A stretch of DNA of 64,000 nt. Origin: Myxococcales bacterium. GTDB taxonomy: Bacteria; Myxococcota_A; Polyangia; Polyangiales; Ga0077539. A program made the translations under genes and the position numbers. The stretch spans positions 124,001-188,000 of the forward strand of contig JAEUKH010000042.1 in assembly GCA_016792845.1 (NCBI GenBank), in the 5' to 3' direction. Below, one piece after another: positions 14,394 to 27,394 of the stretch; position 1 is the stretch's first letter; every line of letters starts with the position of its first letter. The notes below the pieces were generated by a model. The model was not told where the DNA came from, searched no databases, and saw nothing but the letters and a program-made list of their open reading frames with translations.

Positions 14394-15359
14394 GTGAAGC
14401 GTCGTGGCGCGGTCTTGCTCGGGGTTGTTCTGCTGGGGTGTGCGCCGGGCGTCGAGGGCGACCTCGACGAGGCGAGCAGCGCGCTCGAAGCGCCCACGCT
14501 GGTCTTCGCGGGTGACTTCACGCAACGCGCGACGGGGCCCTTGACCGCGGGGTCGACGGTGCAGGTGCGCTACGACCTCTCGCGCCTCACGGCGTGCCGC
14601 GGCACGATGTACGGGCGCGAGGCGTGGGGCGTCACGGGCTTCTGGCGTCTCAACGCGGGCGAGCCCCGATCGTTCGCGCTGAGCGACAACGGCGCGCCGG
14701 TGACCGCGACGCTGAGCCTCCCGGCGGCGCCTGGCACGCTTGAGCTGTGGTTTCAGAACAACAACCGTTGGGGCTGCAACGCGTACGACAGCGCCTACGG
14801 GGCCAACTATCGCTTCGCCGTGGGGGCGCCGGCGCGGGCGCCCGGGTGGGTCGGCAACGGCGTCTCGGTGATCGCGCGGCAGACCTGCGACGCGGGGCCC
14901 TGCGACAGCGACCGTCGGCCGCTCGCGCAAGGGTTTCGCTACGACTCCTGGGCCCGCCAACGGGCGGCCATCCGCGCACTCAGCTTCGACGTCTGGAAGG
15001 CGGGGGTCACCGACCGCGACAACCCCTCGCTCTGGCAAGAGCTCGACGTGCAGCTCCGGTATCGCTTCGGATCTACCGGTGAATTCGCGCGACAGTACGT
15101 GCGCTTCGACCGCCGCGTCGGCAACGACGCGCGCTACACCCTCGACCTCCGCGGGCTCGACCCGATGCCCGACGCGCCCGCGACCACGGCGTGCCCCGCG
15201 GGCCTCACAACGAGCGCCGATCGGCAGACCGTCGAGACCGCCGTCGAGTACTACTTCACCGTCAACGGCACGGCGTATCGGCCTGACGGTGGCGGAGTGT
15301 TTCGCGGGGTCTTCGCAAACTACGCCTCGGCCGTGCCCGCGCGCTGCCTCGCGCCCTGA
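14394..15359 (+). CDS. Secreted lipoprotein, possibly DUF6209-like
   Basis: This is a 321-residue lipoprotein with GTG start. The leader RRGAVLLGVVLLGC gives a lipobox LLGC with Cys at about residue 16. The mature N-terminal half (VFAGDFTQRATGPLTAGSTV, then RLTACRGTMYGREAW) is beta-rich and resembles a small family of myxobacterial and actinobacterial secreted proteins that I associate, tentatively, with DUF6209. The WGCNAYDSAYGANYRF segment and paired cysteines (ARQTCDAGPCDSD) suggest a disulfide-stabilised extracellular domain. No catalytic motif is evident. It precedes the large cysteine-rich lipoprotein gene by about 200 bases. Confidence 0.72.
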   Translation: MKRRGAVLLGVVLLGCAPGVEGDLDEASSALEAPTLVFAGDFTQRATGPLTAGSTVQVRYDLSRLTACRGTMYGREAWGVTGFWRLNAGEPRSFALSDNGAPVTATLSLPAAPGTLELWFQNNNRWGCNAYDSAYGANYRFAVGAPARAPGWVGNGVSVIARQTCDAGPCDSDRRPLAQGFRYDSWARQRAAIRALSFDVWKAGVTDRDNPSLWQELDVQLRYRFGSTGEFARQYVRFDRRVGNDARYTLDLRGLDPMPDAPATTACPAGLTTSADRQTVETAVEYYFTVNGTAYRPDGGGVFRGVFANYASAVPARCLAP

Positions 15360-15557: not shown

Positions 15558-18350
15558 ATGCGGGTTACATCGACACTCTGGGGCGCTTGCCTCATGGCGG
15601 CTCTTGCGTCATGCGGCGGCTCAAACACCGTGGTCGGAGGCCCCGACGCGGCCGCGACCGACCTCGGCACGTCTGACACGGGGCCGCTCGACACGGGGCC
15701 GCTCGACACAGGGCCCAGCGACACAGGGCCCGGCGACACGGGGCCCAGCGACGCGGGCGCTGGCGACACGGGGCCTGTCGACACCGGGCCCGCCGACACG
15801 GGGCCCATCGTGCGCTGCGCGGCCTACGAGCGGAGCTGCGGCGCTGACGGCTGCGTCGACGTCGGCAGCGACCGCCGACACTGCGGCGGCTGCAACGCCG
15901 CGTGCATGGCGGGCCAGGGCTGCGTCGCGGGGCTCTGCCAGACCGGGTGCGGCGAGGGGCTGACCCTCTGCGGCGACCGCTGTACGAGCACCCGCTACGA
16001 CCCCGAGCATTGCGGCGCCTGCGGCACCCGCTGCCCCAACGGGCAAGTCTGCAACAACGGCGCCTGTGCCACGACCTGCGCCAACGGCGGCAGCGGCATC
16101 ACCGAGTGCGCTCCGGTCGAGGGCGTTCGGTACTGCGCCGACACGCAGAACGATCGACGCAACTGCGGGGCCTGCAACACGCTCTGTCCGGTGGGGCAGA
16201 TCTGCCTTGAGGGGCGCTGCGCGACGGCGTGTCCGACCGGGCAGATTCGCTGCGGCGGCGTCTGCGTCGACCCCCAGAACGACCGTCGTCACTGCGGCGC
16301 GTGCAGCAACCTCTGCCCCACCGGGCAGGTCTGCGCGACGGGCCGCTGCACCCTCGAATGTGCGGCGCCGCAAGTGCCTTGTGGCACTGGCGACCTCTTG
16401 CGCTGCGCCGACACCCGCACCGACCCCAACCACTGCGGCGCGTGCGGCACGGTCTGCACCCAGGGGCAGCGCTGCACCGACGGGCGCTGCGTGCTCGAGT
16501 GCCCGCCCGGCCAGGCCGTCTGCGAGAACACCTGCCGCGACCTCCAGAGCGACAACGCCCACTGCGGCGCTTGCGGCAACCGCTGCGGCGCGGGGCAGAG
16601 CTGCTCCGAGGGGCGCTGCGCCATCACCTGCACGATGAACCAGCGGGCCTGCGACAATGCCTGCCGCGATCTCAGCACCGACCTCGCCCACTGCGGCGCC
16701 TGCGGCAACGCCTGCGCGCGCCCCGCGAACGCGAACGCCGCCTGCGAGATGGGCCGCTGCACGAGCACCTGCAACGCGGGCTTCGCCGACTGCGACGCCA
16801 ACAACAGCAACGGATGCGAGGCCAACCTCAACGCGTCGGTCGCGCACTGCGGCCGCTGCGGCGGCGCGTGCAGCGTCGCCAACGGCACCGCGGCGTGCAC
16901 CAACGGCGTCTGCTCGGTCGGCACCTGCAACGCGGGCTTCGGCGACTGCGACGGCAACCCGGCCAACGGGTGCGAGACCAACCTCGCCACCAGCGACACC
17001 CACTGCGGCCGCTGCGGTGTCGCCTGCGCCCTGGCCAACGCGCAATCGACCTGCCAGAGCGGAGCCTGCGCGGTGTCGACGTGCCAGACCGGCTTCGCCA
17101 ACTGCGACAACAACGCCGCCAACGGCTGCGAGACCAACACCCGCAGCGACAACGCCAACTGCGGGGCCTGCGGCACCGTGTGCCCGAACGGTCAGATCTG
17201 CGCGGCGGGCACCTGCACGCTGAGCTGTCCGACGGGGCAGAGCGTGTGCGCGATGGGGTGCTTCGACACGCAAGCGTCGACGGCCCACTGCGGCGCATGC
17301 GGCAACGCGTGCCCGGCCCGCGCCAACGCGGTGTCGACCTGCGCGAGCGGCGCCTGCGGGTTTACATGTTTGACGGGTTTCGCCGACTGCGACAACAACC
17401 CCGCCAACGGCTGCGAGGTCGACACCCGCACGAGCACCGCCCACTGCGGCGCCTGCAACCGGGGCTGCACCGTGGCCAACGGCACCGCCGTCTGCGCGAG
17501 CGGCACCTGCAACGTCGGCGCCTGCAACGCAGGCTTCGGCAACTGTGACGCCAACGCCGCGAACGGGTGCGAGACCAACACCACCAGCTCGAACGCCCAC
17601 TGCGGCGCCTGCGGCCGCGCCTGCACCCTGCCCGGGGGCACGGCCTCGTGCATGGTCAACGCGTGCGTGCTCACGGGCTGCAACACGAGCACCTGCGACC
17701 TCGACGGCAACGCCACCAACGGCTGCGAGGCCAGCACCCGCAACGACAGCTTCGACGGCAACGCCCTCGGCTCGCAGTGGGTCCGCACCGTCGGCGACCT
17801 GCCCACCATGACGGTGTCGGGCGGCGAGCTCACCATCACCAACGCCCCGTGGGCCTCGACCCCCTCGACGGCGAACCACTCGTGGGTCTACGACTACGAA
17901 ATTGACCGCGGCAACCAGATCGTCAACGCGCAGAACATCGGCACCGCGGCCTTCGATCTGAGCTTCGATTTCCGCTTCGACAGCAACGTGCCCGAGCTCA
18001 CCTACGCGGGGGTCGGGCTCGTCAACGCCAACGGTCAGATCGAGGTCTTCGCGGGCGCCTACGACGGGTACTCGGCGCAGCTCGGCGGCATGGCGGTCAA
18101 CGTCAGGGTGCCTGGCTCGGCCCCCGACCTCGGCTGGTCAGGCAACTTCACCGGGAGCGGCGCGGGCACCTACGCCGTGCGCCGCACGGGCCGTACGCTC
18201 ACCGTGAGCCTCGACGGCCGCACGCTGGTCACCGACGCCAACAACACCGCTGACATCCGCGGCGTGGCGATCATCGCGCTGCGCCACCGTAACCCGAACG
18301 ATTACGCCTTCGGCACCTTCGTGCTCCGCGAGCTCCGGCTCTGCTACTGA
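15558..18350 (+). CDS. Large cysteine-rich repeat lipoprotein with lectin-like C-terminus
   Basis: This is a 930-residue surface lipoprotein. The leader MRVTSTLWGACLMAALASC places the lipidated Cys at residue 19, followed by GGSNTVVGGPD. Nine pentapeptide units of DTGPx type (residues 40-84) form a flexible linker. From about residue 90 to 730 run more than a dozen cysteine modules of the pattern HCGxCxxxCxxGxxCxxGxC, some of the CxxGFxDCDxNxxNGCEx type common in myxobacterial secreted proteins. The last 200 residues (DSFDGNALGSQWVRTVGD onward) form a beta-sandwich, probably concanavalin/lectin-like. The start was placed at the ATG just before the leader. It is probably an adhesin or matrix-binding protein. 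A paralogue with the same N-terminal tag lies 7 kb away on the other strand. Confidence 0.85.
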   Translation: MRVTSTLWGACLMAALASCGGSNTVVGGPDAAATDLGTSDTGPLDTGPLDTGPSDTGPGDTGPSDAGAGDTGPVDTGPADTGPIVRCAAYERSCGADGCVDVGSDRRHCGGCNAACMAGQGCVAGLCQTGCGEGLTLCGDRCTSTRYDPEHCGACGTRCPNGQVCNNGACATTCANGGSGITECAPVEGVRYCADTQNDRRNCGACNTLCPVGQICLEGRCATACPTGQIRCGGVCVDPQNDRRHCGACSNLCPTGQVCATGRCTLECAAPQVPCGTGDLLRCADTRTDPNHCGACGTVCTQGQRCTDGRCVLECPPGQAVCENTCRDLQSDNAHCGACGNRCGAGQSCSEGRCAITCTMNQRACDNACRDLSTDLAHCGACGNACARPANANAACEMGRCTSTCNAGFADCDANNSNGCEANLNASVAHCGRCGGACSVANGTAACTNGVCSVGTCNAGFGDCDGNPANGCETNLATSDTHCGRCGVACALANAQSTCQSGACAVSTCQTGFANCDNNAANGCETNTRSDNANCGACGTVCPNGQICAAGTCTLSCPTGQSVCAMGCFDTQASTAHCGACGNACPARANAVSTCASGACGFTCLTGFADCDNNPANGCEVDTRTSTAHCGACNRGCTVANGTAVCASGTCNVGACNAGFGNCDANAANGCETNTTSSNAHCGACGRACTLPGGTASCMVNACVLTGCNTSTCDLDGNATNGCEASTRNDSFDGNALGSQWVRTVGDLPTMTVSGGELTITNAPWASTPSTANHSWVYDYEIDRGNQIVNAQNIGTAAFDLSFDFRFDSNVPELTYAGVGLVNANGQIEVFAGAYDGYSAQLGGMAVNVRVPGSAPDLGWSGNFTGSGAGTYAVRRTGRTLTVSLDGRTLVTDANNTADIRGVAIIALRHRNPNDYAFGTFVLRELRLCY
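15675..15809 (+). repeat. Nine tandem 15-base in-frame repeats (DTGPx linker)
   Basis: Nine imperfect 15-base units of the form GACACGGGGCCGCTC encode Asp-Thr-Gly-Pro-x, with one diverged unit reading DAGAG. Copy-number change by slippage would lengthen or shorten the lipoprotein linker without a frameshift. Confidence 0.9.
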
Positions 18351-18368
18351 GCCCGCAGCGAATGGATC

Positions 18369-18393
18369 GACGAGGGCCAGCTTGACCCTCGTT
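18369..18393 (+). terminator. Hairpin between two lipoprotein genes
   Basis: ACGAGGG (18370-18376) and CCCTCGT (18386-18392) form a 7-bp stem with a nine-base loop, extended by a G-T pair, directly after the stop of the cysteine-rich lipoprotein gene. There is no T-run, so it may be a weak or Rho-assisted terminator or an mRNA 3' end stabiliser. Confidence 0.4.
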
Positions 18394-18417
18394 GACGCCC
18401 GCGCATAAGGTGAGCGG

Positions 18418-20004
18418 GTGGTGAGAAATCACACGCCCAGAGCGTGCTTCGTCTTTGTTCCTCTCGCGCTTGTGGGGTGCCTCCCACCCATCGTTCGCGC
18501 TGACGCAGGCGCCCTCGATGGGGGCGCCTCAGACGTCGCACAACCCGATGCTTCATCGGTCGACAGGGCCGAGAGCTTTGACGATCTTCCCCTCGATGCG
18601 AGCGATCCGTCTGATCGGGCTTCTCCGCAAGACAGCGGTGCGATCCTCGATGTTTCTTCGGGCCCTCCCACCCCCGTACAGCTTCGTTTTCCGTTCGGCG
18701 GAGCGGCGCTGTCGACGCAGCGTCCGACCTTTACGTGGAGCGCGCCCGCGGGCACCGCTCGCACCCTTGAGCTCTGTCGTGACCGTGTCTGTAGTGACCG
18801 CGTCTTGGCCCAAGACGTTTCGGCGCTCACAGCGTTCTCGCCGCAAGCGCCCATCCTACCGGGTGTCTACTTCTGGCGGATCCGCTCTTCGAACCCGGGT
18901 CATCCGGCATTGGTTTCGAACCCGTTGATCTTCCGCGTGGGCGCGCGCTCTGGCGCTGCCGCCTCGTTCACGACCCTGATCAGCGACCTCAACGGCGATG
19001 CCGTCGGTGACGTGGCGCTCTGTGACCCCTCGACCGCGCACTGTCAGGTGATGTTCGGCAATCGCACCCGAGACGCCTTTCGCCGTACGCCGATCGAGCG
19101 CAGCGGAGCCTCTTCGGGTCGACCGCTGCTTCGGATGATCGGCGACTTCGATGCTGACGGGTTTACCGATGCCGTGATCGGCTCACCTCAAACCGGCCGC
19201 GTCGACCTCTTGTACGGCGGCGCCACCCTCCAACCAACCCGCGTGCTGGCCGAAGAGAGCAACGTGCTCAACCTGCTCGCGCTCGGTGACTGGGATGGTG
19301 ACGGCCACGCCGACGTCGGCGTGCAGACCAACCGCAGCGTCATCATTCTTTTCGGCTCCGGGGCCCGCGACGCGGCGCCCGCGCGAGAGACGATCACCTT
19401 CAACGGAGGCATGGTGCTTCAAACGCTGGCGGGCGGCGACCTCGACGGCGACATGCTCGGTGACTTCGTGGCGCGCACAGGCAGCAAAGAAACCATCGCC
19501 CATTTCGGTCACCCGCGAATGACGAGCCGTCGCACACAGACATTGAGCCCCTTCGCGACGCTCATCGGAATGCAGGTCAGAGACTTCAACGGAGACGGTT
19601 TCAGCGACCTCTACCTTCCATCGCGTCCGGCCGTGCTTCTTGGGGGCAGCGCCCTGACTCAGCCGCCGCAGACGCTCGATCTCTCGGTGATCAACAGCGC
19701 CTTGGGCGACCTCAACGCCGACGGGTATCCCGACCTGCTCAACGTGACGATGTCGACGCCTGTGCGCGTCACCTCATGGCTCAACTCTGGCAGACTGGGC
19801 GACCCACTCGTGCCGGGGCCTAACCTTCAGGTCACTTCGATGCCGCGGCTCACAGCGTCGACCGGCTCAGACTTTACGGGCGATGGCTTCGACGACTTTG
19901 TGCTGTTTGCACCTAGCGTCGGGTGCATCCCCCTTGAAGGCGGTGACCGCCTCATCCCCCTGAGCCCGTTCGAGACGCCAGACGAGCCGGTGCTCGCGCC
20001 CTAA
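18418..20004 (+). CDS. FG-GAP/VCBS beta-propeller lipoprotein
   Basis: This is a 528-residue lipoprotein with a GTG start. The leader CFVFVPLALVGC carries the lipobox LVGC. After an Asp/Ala/Ser-rich linker comes a fibronectin-like stretch (TFTWSAPAGTARTLELC), then seven FG-GAP calcium-binding repeats of DxDGDGxxD type, for example DLNGDAVGDV, DFDADGFTDAV, DWDGDGHADV and DFNGDGFSDL. These build an integrin-alpha-like propeller, typical of extracellular binding proteins. Codon third positions are noticeably less GC-rich than in the flanking genes, which may reflect later acquisition or relaxed selection. No partner gene is evident. Confidence 0.88.
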   Translation: MVRNHTPRACFVFVPLALVGCLPPIVRADAGALDGGASDVAQPDASSVDRAESFDDLPLDASDPSDRASPQDSGAILDVSSGPPTPVQLRFPFGGAALSTQRPTFTWSAPAGTARTLELCRDRVCSDRVLAQDVSALTAFSPQAPILPGVYFWRIRSSNPGHPALVSNPLIFRVGARSGAAASFTTLISDLNGDAVGDVALCDPSTAHCQVMFGNRTRDAFRRTPIERSGASSGRPLLRMIGDFDADGFTDAVIGSPQTGRVDLLYGGATLQPTRVLAEESNVLNLLALGDWDGDGHADVGVQTNRSVIILFGSGARDAAPARETITFNGGMVLQTLAGGDLDGDMLGDFVARTGSKETIAHFGHPRMTSRRTQTLSPFATLIGMQVRDFNGDGFSDLYLPSRPAVLLGGSALTQPPQTLDLSVINSALGDLNADGYPDLLNVTMSTPVRVTSWLNSGRLGDPLVPGPNLQVTSMPRLTASTGSDFTGDGFDDFVLFAPSVGCIPLEGGDRLIPLSPFETPDEPVLAP

Positions 20005-20040
20005 ACCCCCTCGACCGACCGCATTCGCTGAATCCTCTTG

Positions 20041-20078
20041 CTTCGTGGTGGCTCTCTTGCACAGAGAGCCCCACGAAG
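20041..20078 (+). promoter_or_regulatory. Long hairpin covering part of a Shine-Dalgarno site
   Basis: CTTCGTGG (20041-20048) pairs with CCACGAAG (20071-20078). After one bulged T, GGCTCTCT (20050-20057) pairs with AGAGAGCC (20063-20070), giving a 16-bp stem with a five-base loop. The last four stem bases, GAAG, are the first half of the GAAGGAG ribosome-binding site (20075-20081) of the next gene. No T-run follows, so translational control or mRNA stability is as likely as termination of the preceding gene. Confidence 0.6.
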
Positions 20079-20089
20079 GAGCGTGAAGC

Positions 20090-20269
20090 ATGTGTCGTCG
20101 CGTCAACTGTTCGGTCTGCAATAAACCCACCTACGCCGGCTGCGGCATGCACATCGAGCAGGTGCTCGGTGACGTCGCCCCGGCTGACCGCTGCCAGGGT
20201 CACACCCGCGCCGAGGCCCCGAAGAGCGGCCCCCAAGAGAAGCCCCGCAAGCCCTGGTGGCCCTTCTGA
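20090..20269 (+). CDS. Small conserved CxxC/CGxH protein
   Basis: This is a 59-residue protein, MCRRVNCSVCNKPTYAGCGM at the start, then HIEQVLGDVAPADRCQGH. The CSxCxKPTxxGCGxH pattern with a later Cys/His pair matches a tiny, widely distributed uncharacterised protein found in actinobacteria, proteobacteria and even plants and fungi. The cysteines and histidines suggest a zinc-binding knuckle. A strong GAAGGAG ribosome-binding site lies eight bases upstream, partly inside a long hairpin. The C-terminus is basic and proline-rich (PRKPWWPF). Function is unknown. It precedes the MMPL exporter gene by about 70 bases on the same strand. Confidence 0.85.
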   Translation: MCRRVNCSVCNKPTYAGCGMHIEQVLGDVAPADRCQGHTRAEAPKSGPQEKPRKPWWPF

Positions 20270-20338
20270 CGCGGCGCCCGTCAGGGCGTCGACGGAGACT
20301 CGCTTTTCAACCCAAAGCCCGATACCTCCCCGAGGGCC

Positions 20339-22558
20339 ATGGAGTCACTCGGACGGAAGGTGCTCGCCCACCGCACCCTGGTCATCGCCCTCTCAACCCT
20401 GGTGCTGCTCGTCTCGGCGCTGCTCATCGCCCGGGGCGGCGCCCTCACCTCGATCGACACCATCGGCACCGAAGCCTGGGAGGGGCGCACCCTCATCGAC
20501 CGCGAGCTTCACCTCCCGGGCGAGACCTCGTTCATCGTGGTGTTCTCGAGCGCCCGACTCGACACCGACACCCCGGCCTTCGGTGAGGCCATGCGGGCCG
20601 CCCTGGCGCCGCTACGGCGCGACCCCCGGGTCGCCTCGGTGATGGCCCCAGAGACGCTCCCAGAGGCCGTCGCCGACCGCTTGCGGAGCGAAGACGCCCA
20701 CCACGCCCTGGCCGTCGTGACGATGCGGGGCAGCTACCGCGAGGCGGCGCGCGAGTTCGCGTCGGTGCGCGCGATGCTGGCCCCTGGGCCCTTGCAGATG
20801 CGCCTCACGGGGCACCTCGCCTTCCGCGCAGACCTCGACAAGACCCTCGAGCACGACCTCTTGCTGGCCGAGGCGCTGAGCCTCCCGCTGGCGCTCTTGG
20901 TGTTGCTGTGGGTGTTTCGCACGGCGGTGGCCGCGCTCTTGCCGGTCTTCGTGGGGGGCTTGGCGGTGGCCGCGGGCATCGCCGGGGTGATGGTGCTCTC
21001 GCACTACGTCGACGTGGCGGCGTACGCCATCAACGTCGCCTCGCTGATCGGCCTCGGGGTCGCGATTGATTATTCGTTGTTCATTGTGTCTCGCTACCGC
21101 GACGAGCTGAGGCGCGGCCGCTCGTACGACGACGCCCTGGTCACCGCGATGAACACGGCGGGCCGCGCGGTGGCCTTCTCGGGCCTCGCGGTGGGCATCG
21201 GCCTCTCGGGGTTGATCTTCTTGCGCGGGTCGTTTCTCGCGCCGATGGGCCTCGCGGGGGCCATCGTGGTGCTCTTCGCGGTGCTCTTCGCGCTGACCTT
21301 TCTGCCCGCCCTCCTCGCGGTGCTCGGGCCACGCATCCACGCCGGCGCGATGCCCTTCGCGCGGAGCCGCCCTGAAGACGGAGGCCGATGGGCGCGGCTC
21401 GCCCACGCGGTGATGCGTCGCCCGGTGGCGGTGCTCGTGCCGGTGCTCGTGCTGCTTCTGGCGCTCGCGGGGCCCTTTCTCCGCTTGCGCCTCGCGGTGG
21501 CCGACGTGAGCATTCTGCCGACCACCGCCGAGGCCCGGCAGGGGTACGACCTCTTGCGGCGGCACTTCCCTGACCACGCCGCGACGCGCATCTTTGTGGT
21601 GAATCACTTCGCCTCGGGGGCCCCGGTCTTGAATGAAGCGCGGGCCCTCGCGATGTACGACCAGACCCGTCAGATCGCTGCCATCGGCGGGGTCCGCACG
21701 GTCGAGAGCGTGGTCAACCTCGGCGACTTCTTCGACCGCGCCTCGACCGCGGTGGTGGCCACCACGCCGACCGAGCAGCTCTCGCCCGAGGTGGCCTTTC
21801 TGCGCGACGCCACGGTGGGCCGCAGCATCGCGGTGGTTCAGGTCTTGGTCGACGCCGCACCGGCCAGCGACGAGGCCCGGGCGGTGGTGAACCAGATCCG
21901 CGCGCACCGCACCGTCGCCGACGGCCGGGTGATCGTGACGGGTCAGACCGCCGACGACCTCGACGTCACCCGCTTCATCGAGGCCCGGGCCCCGGCGGCC
22001 ATCGGCTGGGTGGTCGCCATGACCTTGTTGGTGTTGTTCGTGCTGCTCCGCTCGGTGCTCTTGCCCATCAAAGCGGTGTTGATGAATTTTCTCTCGATCG
22101 GGGCATCGTTCGGCGCGCTGGTGTTCATCTTTCAAGAGGGCCACGGCGCCTCGCTCTTGCGCTTCACCCCTGGGCCCATCGACCCGACGCTGCCGGTGCT
22201 CTTGTTCTGCTCGGTCTTCGGCCTGTCGATGGATTATGAAGTGCTGATGCTCACCCGCATGCACGAGGTCTTCGAGCAGACCGGCGACAACACCCGCGCG
22301 GTGGCCGAGGGGCTCGAAGAGACGGGTCGGCTCATCACCAGCGCGGCGGCCATCATGGTCTCGGTGTTCGCGGCCTTCGCGCTGGCCACGGTGGTCGCCA
22401 TGAAGGCCATGGGGGTCGCCCTCGCCTTGGCGGTGGCCCTCGACGCGACGCTGGTGCGGGTGCTGGTGGTGCCTTCGACGATGCGTCTGCTCGGGGCCCT
22501 GAACTGGTGGGCCCCCGCGGCGATCAAGCGCTGGCTTGGCCCGGCGTCACGCCACTGA
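20339..22558 (+). CDS. MMPL/RND-family exporter
   Basis: This is a 739-residue inner-membrane protein with MMPL-family architecture. An N-terminal helix (VIALSTLVLLVSALLIARG) leads to a periplasmic domain, then a five-to-six helix bundle containing GLGVAIDYSLFIVSRYRDEL near residue 240, the family's proton-relay Asp-Tyr motif. A second helix at about 360, a second periplasmic loop and a second bundle with SVFGLSMDYEVLMLTRMHE near 625 complete it. MMPL proteins use proton motive force to export lipids or other hydrophobic molecules. The adjacent convergent gene encodes a fatty acid hydroxylase-type membrane enzyme, which hints at lipid traffic. The two genes overlap at their 3' ends by 35 bases. 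Confidence 0.92.
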   Translation: MESLGRKVLAHRTLVIALSTLVLLVSALLIARGGALTSIDTIGTEAWEGRTLIDRELHLPGETSFIVVFSSARLDTDTPAFGEAMRAALAPLRRDPRVASVMAPETLPEAVADRLRSEDAHHALAVVTMRGSYREAAREFASVRAMLAPGPLQMRLTGHLAFRADLDKTLEHDLLLAEALSLPLALLVLLWVFRTAVAALLPVFVGGLAVAAGIAGVMVLSHYVDVAAYAINVASLIGLGVAIDYSLFIVSRYRDELRRGRSYDDALVTAMNTAGRAVAFSGLAVGIGLSGLIFLRGSFLAPMGLAGAIVVLFAVLFALTFLPALLAVLGPRIHAGAMPFARSRPEDGGRWARLAHAVMRRPVAVLVPVLVLLLALAGPFLRLRLAVADVSILPTTAEARQGYDLLRRHFPDHAATRIFVVNHFASGAPVLNEARALAMYDQTRQIAAIGGVRTVESVVNLGDFFDRASTAVVATTPTEQLSPEVAFLRDATVGRSIAVVQVLVDAAPASDEARAVVNQIRAHRTVADGRVIVTGQTADDLDVTRFIEARAPAAIGWVVAMTLLVLFVLLRSVLLPIKAVLMNFLSIGASFGALVFIFQEGHGASLLRFTPGPIDPTLPVLLFCSVFGLSMDYEVLMLTRMHEVFEQTGDNTRAVAEGLEETGRLITSAAAIMVSVFAAFALATVVAMKAMGVALALAVALDATLVRVLVVPSTMRLLGALNWWAPAAIKRWLGPASRH

Positions 22559-23447
22559 CCCGCGGCCGCTCGATCGGCTTGATGGGCAGCGCGATCTTGT
22601 GATGGTGCAGGTAGTTTGAAGACAGGCTCCAGTCTTCATAATAAGTACCGAAGAGGCGATCGAACACTGAGAAGGCCGCGGCGTGGTTGATGAGGCCGCC
22701 GCGCTTGCAGTGGTGAAGCTTGTGGGCGTGGTTGTCCATAAAGATGTAGCGGAGCCAGCCGATGTTGTAGGTGACGCTGGTGTGGTCGGTGGCCTGCAAG
22801 AGCAAGATGAGCGCGTAGGCGACCCAGGTGCCCGCGAGGTCGAGCCCCAGCACATACGAAATCACGATCAGCGACGGTTGAAACTGGCTAAACGAGGTGT
22901 CGACCCACGACGACTGGTTGCCGCGCAGAAAGTCGAGCTCGGTCACCGAGTGATGGGCCGCGTGCTTGACGCGATAGAAGCGCAAGATCGGGTTTGCGCC
23001 CTTGCTGTGGCTCATCAAGCGGTGAATGACGTAGTAGGCGAAGTCGGTGGCCACCGTGGCGATGGCGATCAAGAGCCAGCGGTTCGACACCTCGCGGTGC
23101 AGGGGCATCAAGCGGCCGAGGTACCAGCCCGCGGTGACGAAGCCCCCGCCGACCAAGACGCCCTTCACAAAGACCATGAACATGCCGTCGATGATCTCGC
23201 GGGTGGTGGCCTTGGGCAGATCGAGCGAGGCCGAGAACTTCTCGCCGATCAGGGTGAAGGGCACAAACACCGCTGAGACCACGAAGAAGGCGATGAGCGC
23301 GTTCTGAAGCGTCACCCCCATCACCGCGAGCAGCGCCACATAGAAGAACGGTGAGCCGAGGTGACCGAAGGTGCCCCAGACCGCGTTGCCCTTTTGCTCG
23401 GGCGGAATGTCAGGGTGCGCCGTGGTCACAAAAGTCTGAGGCAACAT
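22524..23447 (-). CDS. Fatty acid hydroxylase/sterol desaturase superfamily membrane protein
   Basis: This is a 307-residue integral membrane di-iron oxygenase-type protein. The three histidine boxes are intact: HRLMSH (142-147), HAAHH (162-166) and HAHKLHH (240-246), plus the following LINHAAAFSVFDRLFGTYY signature. Hydrophobic segments lie at about 33-68, 92-112, 123-141 and 190-220. Members hydroxylate or desaturate sterols, fatty acids or carotenoids using O2. The substrate is not readable; myxobacteria make hydroxy fatty acids and some make sterols. It runs convergently into the MMPL gene with a 35-base overlap. Confidence 0.9.
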   Translation of the reverse strand: MLPQTFVTTAHPDIPPEQKGNAVWGTFGHLGSPFFYVALLAVMGVTLQNALIAFFVVSAVFVPFTLIGEKFSASLDLPKATTREIIDGMFMVFVKGVLVGGGFVTAGWYLGRLMPLHREVSNRWLLIAIATVATDFAYYVIHRLMSHSKGANPILRFYRVKHAAHHSVTELDFLRGNQSSWVDTSFSQFQPSLIVISYVLGLDLAGTWVAYALILLLQATDHTSVTYNIGWLRYIFMDNHAHKLHHCKRGGLINHAAAFSVFDRLFGTYYEDWSLSSNYLHHHKIALPIKPIERPRVSGVTPGQASA

Positions 23448-23501
23448 CGGTCAGGCCTTTCAACGGTGAGACAGAGTGACTGAAACCATCAACACGACAC
23501 G

Positions 23502-24077
23502 CTACTCGACGCGGTGGTAATGCATCGCGTAACGCACAGGCACCGGGAGCCGGGGGCTCCTGATTTCGATGGCCAGCGAGAGGCGGCGGCCGTCGGCGCT
23601 CAGGTCGAAGCGGGTGGTGCGAGAGCCCGCGCTCGTCCATGTGGTTTGGGTGAGGCTGGTGGGGGTGATGCGGTGGGTGACGTGGTTGCTCTCGTGGTCA
23701 AAGCCCACCACCCGACGCTCGTCGCCGTTCTCGGGTGAGAGGGCCCGCACCGGCGGCGTCTCGATCTCGACGTCGCCCCCGTGAAACGCGATCTGCACCG
23801 TCGGAAACACCGGGTTACCGTCGGCAATTCGGCTCGTCGCAATGCCCCGCCACAGGGGGAACAGCGCCTCGACGGAGCGCCGAATCGCCACATCGCGCGC
23901 CGCCCGGTTCTCATCACCCGAGACCTCGCGGTAGCGCCCCGAGAGCATCTCGCGCCAGGTCGCCAGGCGAGGGTCTGGCCCCTCTGAAACCCTCGGAGTC
24001 TCAGGCACTTGGGCCATCGGTTCGGTCACCAGCGCCGAGAACACCACCACACCCCACAGCGCCCATCGAAGCCCCAT
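23502..24077 (-). CDS. Exported protein of unknown function
   Basis: This is a 191-residue protein with a signal peptide (MGLRWALWGVVVFSALVTEPMAQ, cleavage near MAQ). The mature part has two helices (LATWREMLSGRYREVSGDENRAARDVAIRRSVEALFPLWR, cited only as a region of residues 40-78) and then a beta-rich half ending RYAMHYHRVE. The pattern of a short helical start followed by a lipocalin-like barrel is suggestive but not diagnostic. It is about 55 bases upstream of the hydroxylase-type gene on the same strand and may be cotranscribed. No family is recognised. Confidence 0.7.
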   Translation of the reverse strand: MGLRWALWGVVVFSALVTEPMAQVPETPRVSEGPDPRLATWREMLSGRYREVSGDENRAARDVAIRRSVEALFPLWRGIATSRIADGNPVFPTVQIAFHGGDVEIETPPVRALSPENGDERRVVGFDHESNHVTHRITPTSLTQTTWTSAGSRTTRFDLSADGRRLSLAIEIRSPRLPVPVRYAMHYHRVE

Positions 24078-24250
24078 CGCTGCCCTCCTGAGACGAGCCC
24101 CGAGGGTATGACCAAAGCCGCCCCCGGCGGTAGCCCGAACGCTTCAAAATCAACTGAGATCGCCCGAGGTTTTGTGCGCTCGGATGCGCACCGCCGGGGC
24201 GGGCGAAGGGCCCACAGCGGGGCGGCTTCGAGAGCGCAGCGGGGCGGCCC

Positions 24251-25324
<1,074 letters not shown>

Positions 25325-25341
25325 CGTAGCGCTCTCTCTTT

Positions 25342-27231
25342 TCAGCGAATCCAGAGACCGTAGAACTCTGAGCCCGCGGTGGGCGTGATGGCGTCTGAGC
25401 GGTCGTTGACGTCTGCGTCGCCGGTGCGGGGCGAACAACTCGAGCCAGAGCAGAAGGCCCCGAGGCCCGTCGGGTAGTCGACGTTGTCGCGGTACTCGGT
25501 CGAGAGGTACGCGCGATCGCGGTTCGAGTCTTGGGCGCCGTCGGCCTCGCCGGCTTTAAAGAACAAGCGGGTGCGCCCGATGCCGTTGAGGAGCGCGGTG
25601 TCGCCCGCGCGGGGGTTCGCGCCCGCGATCACGCACGCGTTGGTGCACGGCGGAAAGCTCGTAAACCCTTGCGAACCCGCGCAGCTCCACCCGAGCCCCG
25701 CGAAGCGATCGCGGAGGGTGACGTCGTTCAGACAGCTCGCGTCGGTGCGCAACAAGAAGAGGTCGCGGTGGGTCACCATGAGCTCGCGCCCCCGGATGCG
25801 GTGAAAGGCCACCGAGCGCGCGTCTTGGTTCTGCGTGGGGTCGAGGGGCCCGAAGCTCGCCGAGGTGCTCTCCCAGTTGTTGGGCGTCGGGGTGCTCACG
25901 AGCCAGTTGCCCTGGTTCGCGCCATCGCCGTTGTTGGTCACCGTGGCGAGGAAGGTCCACCCGCCGCCCTCGCGGGTCATGTCGCAGTAGGCCTCGAAGG
26001 GCTCGACGGGCCCGGTGCCATCGGGGTCGAGGCGATACACCCCGCTCTGCAGCTCAGGGCGCGCTGAATGCAACGCGTTGCAAGAGACCGCAACGAGCTC
26101 GCAGCGGCCGGCCACGCACGCGAAGCCGGTGCCGCACGCCACCCCGCACGCGCCGCAATGGAGGTTGTTGCTTTGAGTGCTCGTCTCGCACCCGTTCTCG
26201 ACGTTGTTGTCGCAGTTGGCGAGGTTGCTCGGGCACGCGCTGATCGCGCAGCGCCCGGCCATGCAGGCCGCGGTGCCGTTGGCGCTCTGGCAGCGGTTGT
26301 TGCACGCCCCGCAGTGGGCTGTGGTGTTCTGCGTGTTGGTCTCGCAGCCGTTCGACGCGTCGCCGTCGCAGTCGCCGAAGCCGTCGTTGCAGAAGGCGCG
26401 GCAGGCGGCGCTGACACACGCCGAGGTGGCGTTGCTGCGGCTCGGGCACGAGAGGCCGCACATGCCGCAGTTGCCTCGGTCGCTCTGGAGGTCGCGGCAC
26501 GCCGAAGCGCAGACTGTCAGCCCCTCGGTGCAGGTCAGCACGCAGCGCCCCGCGGCGCAGGTCTCGCCCGTCGCGCAGGCCATCGCGCACGCGCCGCAGT
26601 GCGCGCGGTCGGTCTGAAGGTCGCGGCAGCTGCCCTCACACACGGTCTGGCTGCCGGTGCAGAGCGCGACGCACACCCCGTCCGAGCACGCGCGCCCGCT
26701 CGGGCATTGCATCGCACAGGCGCCGCAGTGGGCGGGGTTGTTGCGGGTGTCGACGCACTGCCCCGCGCACACCGACTGCCCGGTCGGGCACACCACCGCG
26801 CAGCGGCCCATCACGCAGCGCTCCGCCCCCTCGCACGCGGTGCCGCAGGTGCCGCACGCGCTCGGGTCGGTCTCGAGGTCGACGCAGCGGTTGTTGCAGA
26901 GCACCTGCGTGCCAGGGCAGCGCGGCCCCGCATCGACCACGCCAGCGTCGAGGCTCGGGGCGTCACCCGCGGCGCCATCGCTCGCCATCGCGTCGACGAG
27001 GCCCGCGTCGACCGCGCCGAGATCCGCCGAGCCCCCATCGAGCGGCCCTGTGTCGCCAGGCCCAGCATCGGGCGGGCCTGCGTCGAGCGGGCCCCCGTCG
27101 GGCAGACCCCCGTCGGGCAGACCCAGATCGGTGACGCCCACATCGGGGCCGCCCACCACGGTGTTCGAGCCACCGCAACCCGCCAGCGACGCCAGCGCCC
27201 CCATCGCGCCCAACCATGACACTCTGCGCAT
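25342..27231 (-). CDS. Cysteine-rich repeat lipoprotein with fibrinogen-like C-terminal domain
   Basis: This is a 629-residue paralogue of the 930-residue lipoprotein. The leader MRRVSWLGAMGALASLAGC has the lipidated Cys at residue 19, followed by the same GGSNTVVGGPD tag. Next come an Asp/Gly/Pro linker (LPDGGPLDAGPPDAG type), then about eight cysteine modules (HCGxCxxxCxxGxxC), and from about residue 385 a domain with SGVYRLDPDG, then FEAYCDMTREGGGWTFLATV. That is the signature of fibrinogen-related/intelectin-like lectin domains, which bind sugars or acetyl groups. It is likely a surface adhesin. Its gene ends 18 bases upstream of the glycosyltransferase start and on the same strand. Confidence 0.86.
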   Translation of the reverse strand: MRRVSWLGAMGALASLAGCGGSNTVVGGPDVGVTDLGLPDGGLPDGGPLDAGPPDAGPGDTGPLDGGSADLGAVDAGLVDAMASDGAAGDAPSLDAGVVDAGPRCPGTQVLCNNRCVDLETDPSACGTCGTACEGAERCVMGRCAVVCPTGQSVCAGQCVDTRNNPAHCGACAMQCPSGRACSDGVCVALCTGSQTVCEGSCRDLQTDRAHCGACAMACATGETCAAGRCVLTCTEGLTVCASACRDLQSDRGNCGMCGLSCPSRSNATSACVSAACRAFCNDGFGDCDGDASNGCETNTQNTTAHCGACNNRCQSANGTAACMAGRCAISACPSNLANCDNNVENGCETSTQSNNLHCGACGVACGTGFACVAGRCELVAVSCNALHSARPELQSGVYRLDPDGTGPVEPFEAYCDMTREGGGWTFLATVTNNGDGANQGNWLVSTPTPNNWESTSASFGPLDPTQNQDARSVAFHRIRGRELMVTHRDLFLLRTDASCLNDVTLRDRFAGLGWSCAGSQGFTSFPPCTNACVIAGANPRAGDTALLNGIGRTRLFFKAGEADGAQDSNRDRAYLSTEYRDNVDYPTGLGAFCSGSSCSPRTGDADVNDRSDAITPTAGSEFYGLWIR

Positions 27232-27311: not shown

Positions 27312-27394
27312 TGCGAGCGAAAGGACTTGAACCTTCACGGGTGTTACCCCGCCAGAACCTGAATCTGGTGCGTCTGCCATTCCGCCACGCTCGC
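27312..27394 (-). tRNA. tRNA-Leu (anticodon CAG)
   Basis: The 83-base gene folds as a cloverleaf: acceptor stem GCGAGCG/CGCTCGC, a D-arm starting TGGCGGAATGGCAGACGC, anticodon stem CCAGA/TCTGG enclosing TTCAGGT (anticodon CAG), a long class II variable arm CGGGGTAACACCCG, and a T-arm GGTTCAAGTCC. The discriminator base is A and CCA is not encoded (CCC follows). It reads CUG codons, the dominant leucine codon in this GC-rich genome. It has its own promoter and terminator. Confidence 0.97.

What the first reader, a model, noticed from the sequence alone, without database searches (positions are those of the whole stretch)
15558..27231. Two paralogous surface lipoproteins share an N-terminal tag but carry different C-terminal domains
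Both begin with a leader followed by Cys-GGSNTVVGGPD, an Asp/Pro/Gly linker and cysteine modules. One ends in a lectin-like beta-sandwich, the other in a fibrinogen-like domain. The tag after the lipidated Cys may act as a sorting signal, and the linker-plus-module layout lets ends be swapped. They are on opposite strands 7 kb apart.
Basis: partly seen in the sequence, partly recalled or inferred. Interest (0 to 1): 0.5.

Follow-up and report, generated by a model that had tools for sequence, protein, structure and literature searches.

The report
Shared N-terminal tag on myxobacterial lipoproteins
Two large cysteine-rich lipoproteins in this window share a short tag next to their lipid anchor, and the same tag turns out to sit on about thirty otherwise different lipoproteins of this bacterium and on many in its close relatives, which makes it a good candidate for an undescribed address label that sends proteins to one place in the cell envelope.

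Summary
In detail: A (15558-18350, +) and B (25342-27231, -) both read C-GGSNTVVGGPD after a lipobox, then a D/G/P/T linker, STIG1/MXAN_6577-type cysteine modules and unrelated C-termini. The exact 12-mer is unique to this pair, but it is one form of a wider tag, C-x-G-x-[S/T]-V-V-G-G-P, right after the lipidated Cys. I read it on 31 lipoproteins of this genome. In 864 kb taken without regard to the tag, 7 of 79 predicted lipoproteins carry it and none of the other 72 matches even 4 of 5 core positions. Tagged proteins are long and cysteine-rich, with many different C-termini. The tag is abundant in three of five genera of the family; a variant, S-[VI]-L-G-G-P, sits on one conserved lipoprotein in the other two. 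It is rare in the rest of the phylum. The core is 93% identical between copies, against 18% for signal peptides and 14% for linkers, with scrambled codons. Best explanation: an N-terminal lipoprotein sorting/export signal, working like the Bacteroidetes LES and the M. xanthus +7 rule but with another sequence. Location and receptor are untested. B's end is fibrinogen/intelectin-like; A's lectin-like end is unconfirmed.

The parts
15558..18350 (+). Lipoprotein A, 930 aa: signal peptide, Cys19, tag, linker, cysteine modules, orphan beta-rich end
15612..15647 (+). Tag of A: CGGSNTVVGGPD, starting at the lipidated Cys
15648..15815 (+). Asp/Thr/Gly/Pro linker of A (DTGP repeats)
   Evidence: read directly
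15816..17741 (+). Cysteine-module array of A (STIG1 / NF041328, 8 stretches each)
17742..18347 (+). C-terminal domain of A, about 202 aa, all-beta in a low-confidence model; no homologue in 12 other family genomes
25342..27231 (-). Lipoprotein B, 629 aa: signal peptide, Cys19, tag, linker, cysteine modules, fibrinogen/intelectin-like end
27142..27177 (-). Tag of B: CGGSNTVVGGPD
26920..27141 (-). Asp/Gly/Pro/Ala linker of B
   Evidence: read directly
26101..26919 (-). Cysteine-module array of B (STIG1 3 stretches, NF041328 2 stretches); inner boundary approximate
25345..26100 (-). C-terminal fibrinogen-like domain of B (GGGWT_bact about 25951-26085; intelectin match about 25768-26085)

Best explanation
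C-x-G-x-[S/T]-V-V-G-G-P at positions +1 to about +10 of the mature protein is an N-terminal lipoprotein sorting signal, most likely for outer-membrane surface (or extracellular-matrix) display of large disulfide-rich lipoproteins in one family of Myxococcota. Steps: (1) Sec export, lipidation and signal peptidase II cleavage leave Cys+1 acylated (inferred from the lipobox). (2) The uncharged, turn-prone SVVGGP segment lies just outside the bilayer and is recognised by a component of the export path, such as a Lol-type extractor, the T2SS or a surface flippase (inferred; no receptor found). (3) The Asp/Gly/Pro linker acts as a flexible tether, the cysteine modules as a disulfide-stiffened stalk, and the C-terminal domain as the working tip (architecture shown, roles inferred). 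Shown: recurrence, fixed place next to the lipid anchor, conservation of the core against diverged flanks, all-or-none occurrence among lipoproteins, and concentration in related genomes.
For: 31 tagged lipoproteins read in this genome; 28 of 33 pattern sites at a lipobox Cys against 2 sites in all for the reversed pattern. In 864 kb taken regardless of tag, 7 of 79 predicted lipoproteins are tagged and 0 of 72 others match even 4 of 5 core positions. In 69 tagged proteins mean pairwise identity is 0.93 in the core, 0.18 in the signal peptide, 0.14 in the linker; 48 distinct 15-base spellings in 69, and Ser is spelled by both TCN (46) and AGY (14). Positions the search patterns mostly did not demand are also conserved: Gly+3 in 45 of 59 with the commonest spacing, Pro after GG in 42 of 69. 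Profile search in 13 family genomes: 21-48 hits (E<=0.1) in genera g1-g3 with best E 1e-5 to 1e-12, against 6-7 hits with best E 0.01 in g4 and g5. Twenty weaker hits (19 from g2 and g3, one from another family) all carry the tag or a near form. Tagged proteins are longer (median 912 vs 355 aa, p=8e-5) and more cysteine-rich (7 of 7 above 5% Cys vs 14 of 72). Precedents: Ala+7 is essential for matrix export of FibA in M. xanthus (PMC3222651), and an N-terminal LES suffices for surface export in Bacteroidetes (PMC5080379).
Against: No localisation data and no receptor. The tag is not the only way to be a large cysteine-rich lipoprotein: of the 42 module-bearing ORFs scanned, 15 carry the tag and 27 do not. 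In this genome, multi-member C-terminal clusters are purely tagged or purely untagged, which could mean co-inheritance. The first Val codon is skewed to GTG (51:15 against 31:35 at the second, p=6e-4), a possible trace of common descent. In g4 and g5 the variant was seen only on one protein type and on 0 of 20 called lipoproteins in 400 kb, so expansion by duplication from a founder is plausible. The core identity figure is biased upward because most sites were found by the core.
Confidence: 0.55

Rival explanations
1. Inherited cassette: signal peptide, tag and linker were copied from a founder lipoprotein by duplication and fusion, and the tag has no role of its own.
For: The same cassette layout in all; a variant tag on one conserved lipoprotein in g4 and g5 looks like a founder; multi-member C-terminal clusters do not mix tagged and untagged members; skew of the first Val codon.
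Against: Core 93% identical while signal peptide and linker on either side are 18% and 14%; silent sites scrambled, Ser in two codon families; kept across three genera. Unselected descent would not spare only five residues.
Confidence: 0.15
2. The tag decides inner/outer membrane or periplasm/matrix sorting through the ordinary Lol system (a local form of the M. xanthus +2/+7 rules) rather than surface export by a dedicated route.
For: M. xanthus uses +2 Lys for the inner membrane and +7 Ala for the matrix (PMC3222651); the tag core spans +5 to +9; 0 of 69 tagged proteins have Lys+2.
Against: A contiguous consensus of this length is longer than known Lol avoidance signals (recalled); 72 untagged lipoproteins of the genome manage without it, and Lys+2 is rare among them too (2 of 72).
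Confidence: 0.17
3. The tag is a processing or release site: a protease cuts after Gly-Gly and frees the protein from its lipid anchor, or joins it to something else.
For: Gly-Gly sites are known cleavage motifs (recalled: double-glycine leaders, GlyGly-CTERM); a flexible linker follows directly.
Against: Pro follows GG in 42 of 69, a poor P1' residue for most proteases (established knowledge); a lipidated protein that is always released gains little from its lipobox.
Confidence: 0.08
4. The tag is a structural motif: SVVGGP strands pair between neighbours and cluster these lipoproteins in the membrane.
For: Beta-prone Val-Val between Ser and Gly-Gly (sequence).
Against: Only 4-6 residues, next to the bilayer; no structural evidence.
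Confidence: 0.05

Closest known systems
Lipoprotein export signal (LES) of Bacteroidetes, K-(D/E)2 or Q-A-(D/E)2 (PMC5080379: abstract and one Results section read)
   Same: Short conserved motif directly after the acylated Cys, on a subset of lipoproteins with large outward-acting domains, absent from other lipoproteins
   Different: LES is charged and lies at +2 to +6; this tag is uncharged in its core (SVVGG at +5 to +9) and longer; export by it is not shown; different phylum
Ala+7 extracellular-matrix signal of Myxococcus xanthus FibA (PMC3222651: passages and one Results section read)
   Same: Same phylum; same stretch after the Cys; a single residue there decides export
   Different: Val, not Ala, at +7 in the usual spacing; a contiguous motif, not one residue; Ala+7 is not prominent among untagged lipoproteins of this genome (13 of 72)
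MYXO-CTERM / myxosortase (PMC11980579: passages read)
   Same: Myxococcota surface-sorting tag with dozens of client proteins, many predicted adhesins
   Different: C-terminal, with transmembrane helix and basic tail; ours is N-terminal and uses the ordinary lipobox
MXAN_6577-like cysteine-rich proteins (NF041328) / STIG1 (PF04885)
   Same: Cysteine modules of A and B belong here
   Different: The family models do not describe the N-terminal tag (no NCBIfam family for four tagged N-termini)
Intelectins / fibrinogen-related lectins
   Same: B's end matches XEEL and intelectin-1 and GGGWT_bact
   Different: Bacterial lipoprotein; the match covers about 106 residues; ligand-binding residues not checked

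Membership tests
Bacterial lipoproteins (signal peptidase II type) | Basic n-region, hydrophobic stretch, lipobox ending in Cys | tested here: met
   Read by eye and by a script's rules, not by a trained predictor
Bacteroidetes LES | K or Q-A followed by two acidic residues at +2 to +6 | tested here: not met
   Consensus x-G-x-S-V-V-G-G
Bacteroidetes LES | Motif sufficient for surface export | not testable with these tools
   Needs a reporter experiment
M. xanthus +7 matrix signal | Ala at +7 | tested here: not met
   +7 is Val or Ile at the two usual spacings, 68 of 69 proteins
MYXO-CTERM | C-terminal Cys motif, transmembrane helix, basic tail | tested here: not met
   C-termini of A and B read; no hydrophobic helix with a basic tail
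MXAN_6577-like cysteine-rich (NF041328) | Score above 100 bits | tested here: met
   A 367.3, B 144.3
GGGWT_bact fibrinogen-like (B) | Score above 30 bits | tested here: met
   71.4 bits; Fibrinogen_C 22.9 against cut-off 22
Lectin-like beta-sandwich (A's end) | Homology or fold match to a lectin | tested here: inconclusive
   No family, no solved relative, low-confidence all-beta model

The most novel reading that the evidence does not exclude
A lineage-specific lipoprotein export code: C-x-G-x-S-V-V-G-G-P is read by an unidentified receptor that carries fully disulfide-bonded stalk proteins across the outer membrane, and the family has used this one address to build a repertoire of some 30-45 surface stalks per genome with different tips, the Myxococcota counterpart of the Bacteroidetes LES.
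Probability: 0.45. Interest if true: 0.75.

Novelty: new variant of a known kind. Interest (0 to 1): 0.6.

Why it matters
How Gram-negative bacteria choose which lipoproteins reach the cell surface is known for few groups. A sharp tag on dozens of proteins of one genome, absent from most of its other lipoproteins, gives a directly testable handle on surface-lipoprotein sorting in Myxococcota, would let surface proteomes be predicted from sequence, and offers bait for finding the receptor.

Tried and rejected
Exact 12-mer as a family: rejected; it is unique to A and B. Short protein query: gave nothing and proves nothing. DNA-level motif (regulatory or recombination site): rejected because the silent sites vary. 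'The tag belongs to the STIG1 modules': rejected; 13 of the 31 tagged proteins have no Pfam STIG1 match at E<=0.001, and 27 of 42 module-bearing ORFs have no tag. 'The tag occurs throughout Myxococcota': rejected; of 377 phylum genomes 37 have a match to the strict pattern, but only G000 (13 sites) and G139 (5) have more than 3. 'g4 and g5 lack the tag altogether': first believed, then corrected when a search with a C-terminal domain showed C-TVGRS-[VI]-L-G-G-P on four proteins there, a form that my patterns excluded. Structure of A's end: one single-sequence model, too poor for a fold search.

Rows dropped before the 69-sequence counts: duplicates of G000 loci (L095, L135, L144) and non-lipoprotein or doubtful hits (L099, L118, L130, L131, L132, L152). 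The upstream-coding filter of the census dropped 5 of 84 calls. One tagged protein of G000 (second in L072) and several from relatives run off the fetched stretch. L069 was left out of the 57-protein C-terminal comparison. In one search, 20 of the 59 domain hits were fetched; 8 more were already known to be tagged; 31 were not read.

Full report
What was claimed. Two lipoproteins share a tag after the lipidated Cys, then a linker and cysteine modules, and differ in their ends. Both genes are present as stated: A 15558-18350 (+) and B 25342-27231 (-), 6,991 bases apart. Both begin with a signal peptide and lipobox, then CGGSNTVVGGPD; the tag DNA differs at 4 of 35 bases, all silent. The modules belong to NF041328 (MXAN_6577-like; A 367 bits, B 144, cut-off 100) and Pfam STIG1. 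B's end is fibrinogen-like (GGGWT_bact 4.4e-20) and matches solved intelectins (XEEL 6.2e-8). A's end has no assignable family, no homologue at E<=1e-5 in 12 other family genomes, and a poor all-beta model, so 'lectin-like' stays a guess.

How common the tag is. The exact 12-mer occurs only at these two places in the 6.7-Mb genome. A generalised DNA pattern (Cys, 3 or 4 free codons, Ser/Thr-like, Val, Val/Ile/Met, Gly, Gly) has 20 + 13 sites against 1 + 1 for the reversed pattern. Of these 33 sites, 28 sit at a lipobox Cys of a long open frame. Three more tagged lipoproteins came from reading module-bearing ORFs found by a STIG1 search that knew nothing of the tag, making 31. Of the 42 module-bearing ORFs scanned, 15 carry the tag and 27 do not.

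Census without regard to the tag. I took the first 400 kb of contigs C14 and C53 plus the window (864 kb) and called lipoproteins by simple rules: 79 calls, 7 tagged; none of the other 72 matches even 4 of 5 core positions. The caller is crude and missed at least two tagged proteins known from other searches (C53:379526; C14:244629). Tagged proteins are longer (median 912 against 355 aa, Mann-Whitney p=8e-5); all 7 exceed 5% Cys, against 14 of 72 untagged. Over all 31 tagged proteins the Cys content is 7-17% but for one at 1.7%.

What is conserved. In 69 tagged proteins (31 own, 38 from relatives) the core [S/T]-V-V-G-G starts 4 residues after the Cys in 59, 5 in 9 and 7 in 1. Mean pairwise identity is 0.93 in the core, 0.18 in the 18 residues before the Cys and 0.14 in 20 linker residues. 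The core was demanded by most searches, so its figure is biased upward; positions that were mostly not demanded are still conserved: Gly+3 in 45 of 59 with the common spacing, Pro after GG in 42 of 69 (one site came from a search that did demand Pro). The 15 core bases have 48 spellings in 69, and Ser uses TCN 46 and AGY 14 times. Selection on the peptide explains this better than recent copying. A skew of the first Val codon (GTG 51, GTC 15; second Val 31 and 35; p=6e-4) may be a trace of descent.

Who has it. The strict pattern with Pro over 377 phylum genomes is present in 37, but exceeds 3 sites only in G000 (13) and G139 (5). In the 13 genomes of the family, a profile of the tagged N-termini gives 40 hits in the own genome, 35-48 in five g3 genomes, 21-30 in three g2 genomes, and 6-7 with best E about 0.01 in four genomes of g4 and g5 (E<=0.1; the tool scored 150 candidates per genome). 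In the order (115 genomes, E<=0.001) only g1-g3 have three or more matches reaching across the tag; elsewhere there are 0-3 matches, mostly confined to the signal peptide. I read 20 weaker hits: all carry the tag or a near form such as SVVSG, SIVGS, SILGG, PVVGG; one is in another family (G372, CDGSSVVGGG).

A correction from searching by body. To escape the bias of searching by tag, I searched the family with the C-terminal 'DMDLH' domain of a tagged protein and read 20 of 59 hits: 5 tagged, 1 near-tag (CDDAPVVSG), 11 lipoproteins without the tag, 3 cut off before the N-terminus. Four of the five tagged ones are in g4 and g5 and read C-TVGRS-[VI]-L-G-G-P, a variant my patterns had excluded. 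So the tag is older than the three-genus expansion, and the same end domain occurs with and without it. In 400 kb of g4 and g5 none of 20 called lipoproteins is tagged, so multi-copy use there is not shown; at the own genome's density only about two would be expected.

What it is attached to. Pfam on the 29 other tagged proteins of this genome: STIG1 in 16, Fibrinogen_C in 4 (one of them at 21.6 bits, just under the cut-off), RCC1 propellers in 2, F5/8 type C in 1, a carboxypeptidase-regulatory-like domain in 1, no family in 8 (categories overlap). C-terminal clusters within the genome are small and each is purely tagged or purely untagged, but the GGGW fibrinogen-like motif occurs in 5 tagged and 2 untagged of 57 proteins, and A's closest body match is an untagged lipoprotein.

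How it probably works. Directly shown: a conserved, uncharged peptide next to the lipid anchor of a selected set of large, disulfide-rich lipoproteins. Inferred: it is read by the lipoprotein-sorting path and sends them to the surface or matrix; the linker is a tether, the modules a stalk, the end the working tip. Precedents are the +7 Ala of M. xanthus FibA, whose change to Asp keeps the protein in the outer membrane (PMC3222651, section read), and the LES of Bacteroidetes, sufficient for surface export (PMC5080379, abstract and one section). MYXO-CTERM is a C-terminal tag for the same destination (PMC11980579, passages). By sequence the tag is none of these.

Novelty. No NCBIfam family matches four tagged N-termini tried, and Pfam gives only noise. 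Text searches for SVVGG with lipoprotein and VVGG with lipobox returned no paper; searches on Myxococcota lipoprotein sorting returned the papers cited and none describing this tag in its title or abstract. The library lacks most subscription journals and figures, so this is weak evidence of absence. I rate it a new variant of a known kind (N-terminal lipoprotein sorting signals), with the function inferred.

Noticed in passing
window 27312-27394 (-): A tRNA gene lies between B and the next gene (Rfam RF00005, 52.8 bits); by eye a Leu tRNA with a CAG anticodon (not run through ARAGORN).
   Followed up: partly
window 18418-20004 (+) and 14394-15359 (+): Neighbours of A are two lipoprotein-like ORFs without the tag: an FG-GAP repeat protein and a DUF6209 protein.
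   Followed up: no
window 17742-18347 (+): A's 202-residue end domain has no homologue in the 12 other genomes of its family: an orphan tip on a common stalk.
   Followed up: partly
L262 (G372:C10, about 35732): A lipoprotein of another family of the order reads CDGSSVVGGG, followed by what looks like a von Willebrand A-type domain (VDIVVSVDNSRSM; motif recalled).
   Followed up: no
L086 (G000:C14:266709), L118, L131, L132: The tag DNA pattern also hits a transmembrane segment (CxTISVMGG) that by recall looks like the LolC/LolE permease; a chance match, left out of the counts.
   Followed up: no
L034, L036, L059, L063, L068 and L039, L055, L060, L061, L065: Two families of C-terminal domains (one with a W-x-x-HH-x-G motif) occur only on module-bearing lipoproteins without the tag in this genome; these proteins may use another address.
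   Followed up: partly
G000 genome: 249 STIG1 matches in one bacterial genome, a very large repertoire of cysteine modules.
   Followed up: partly
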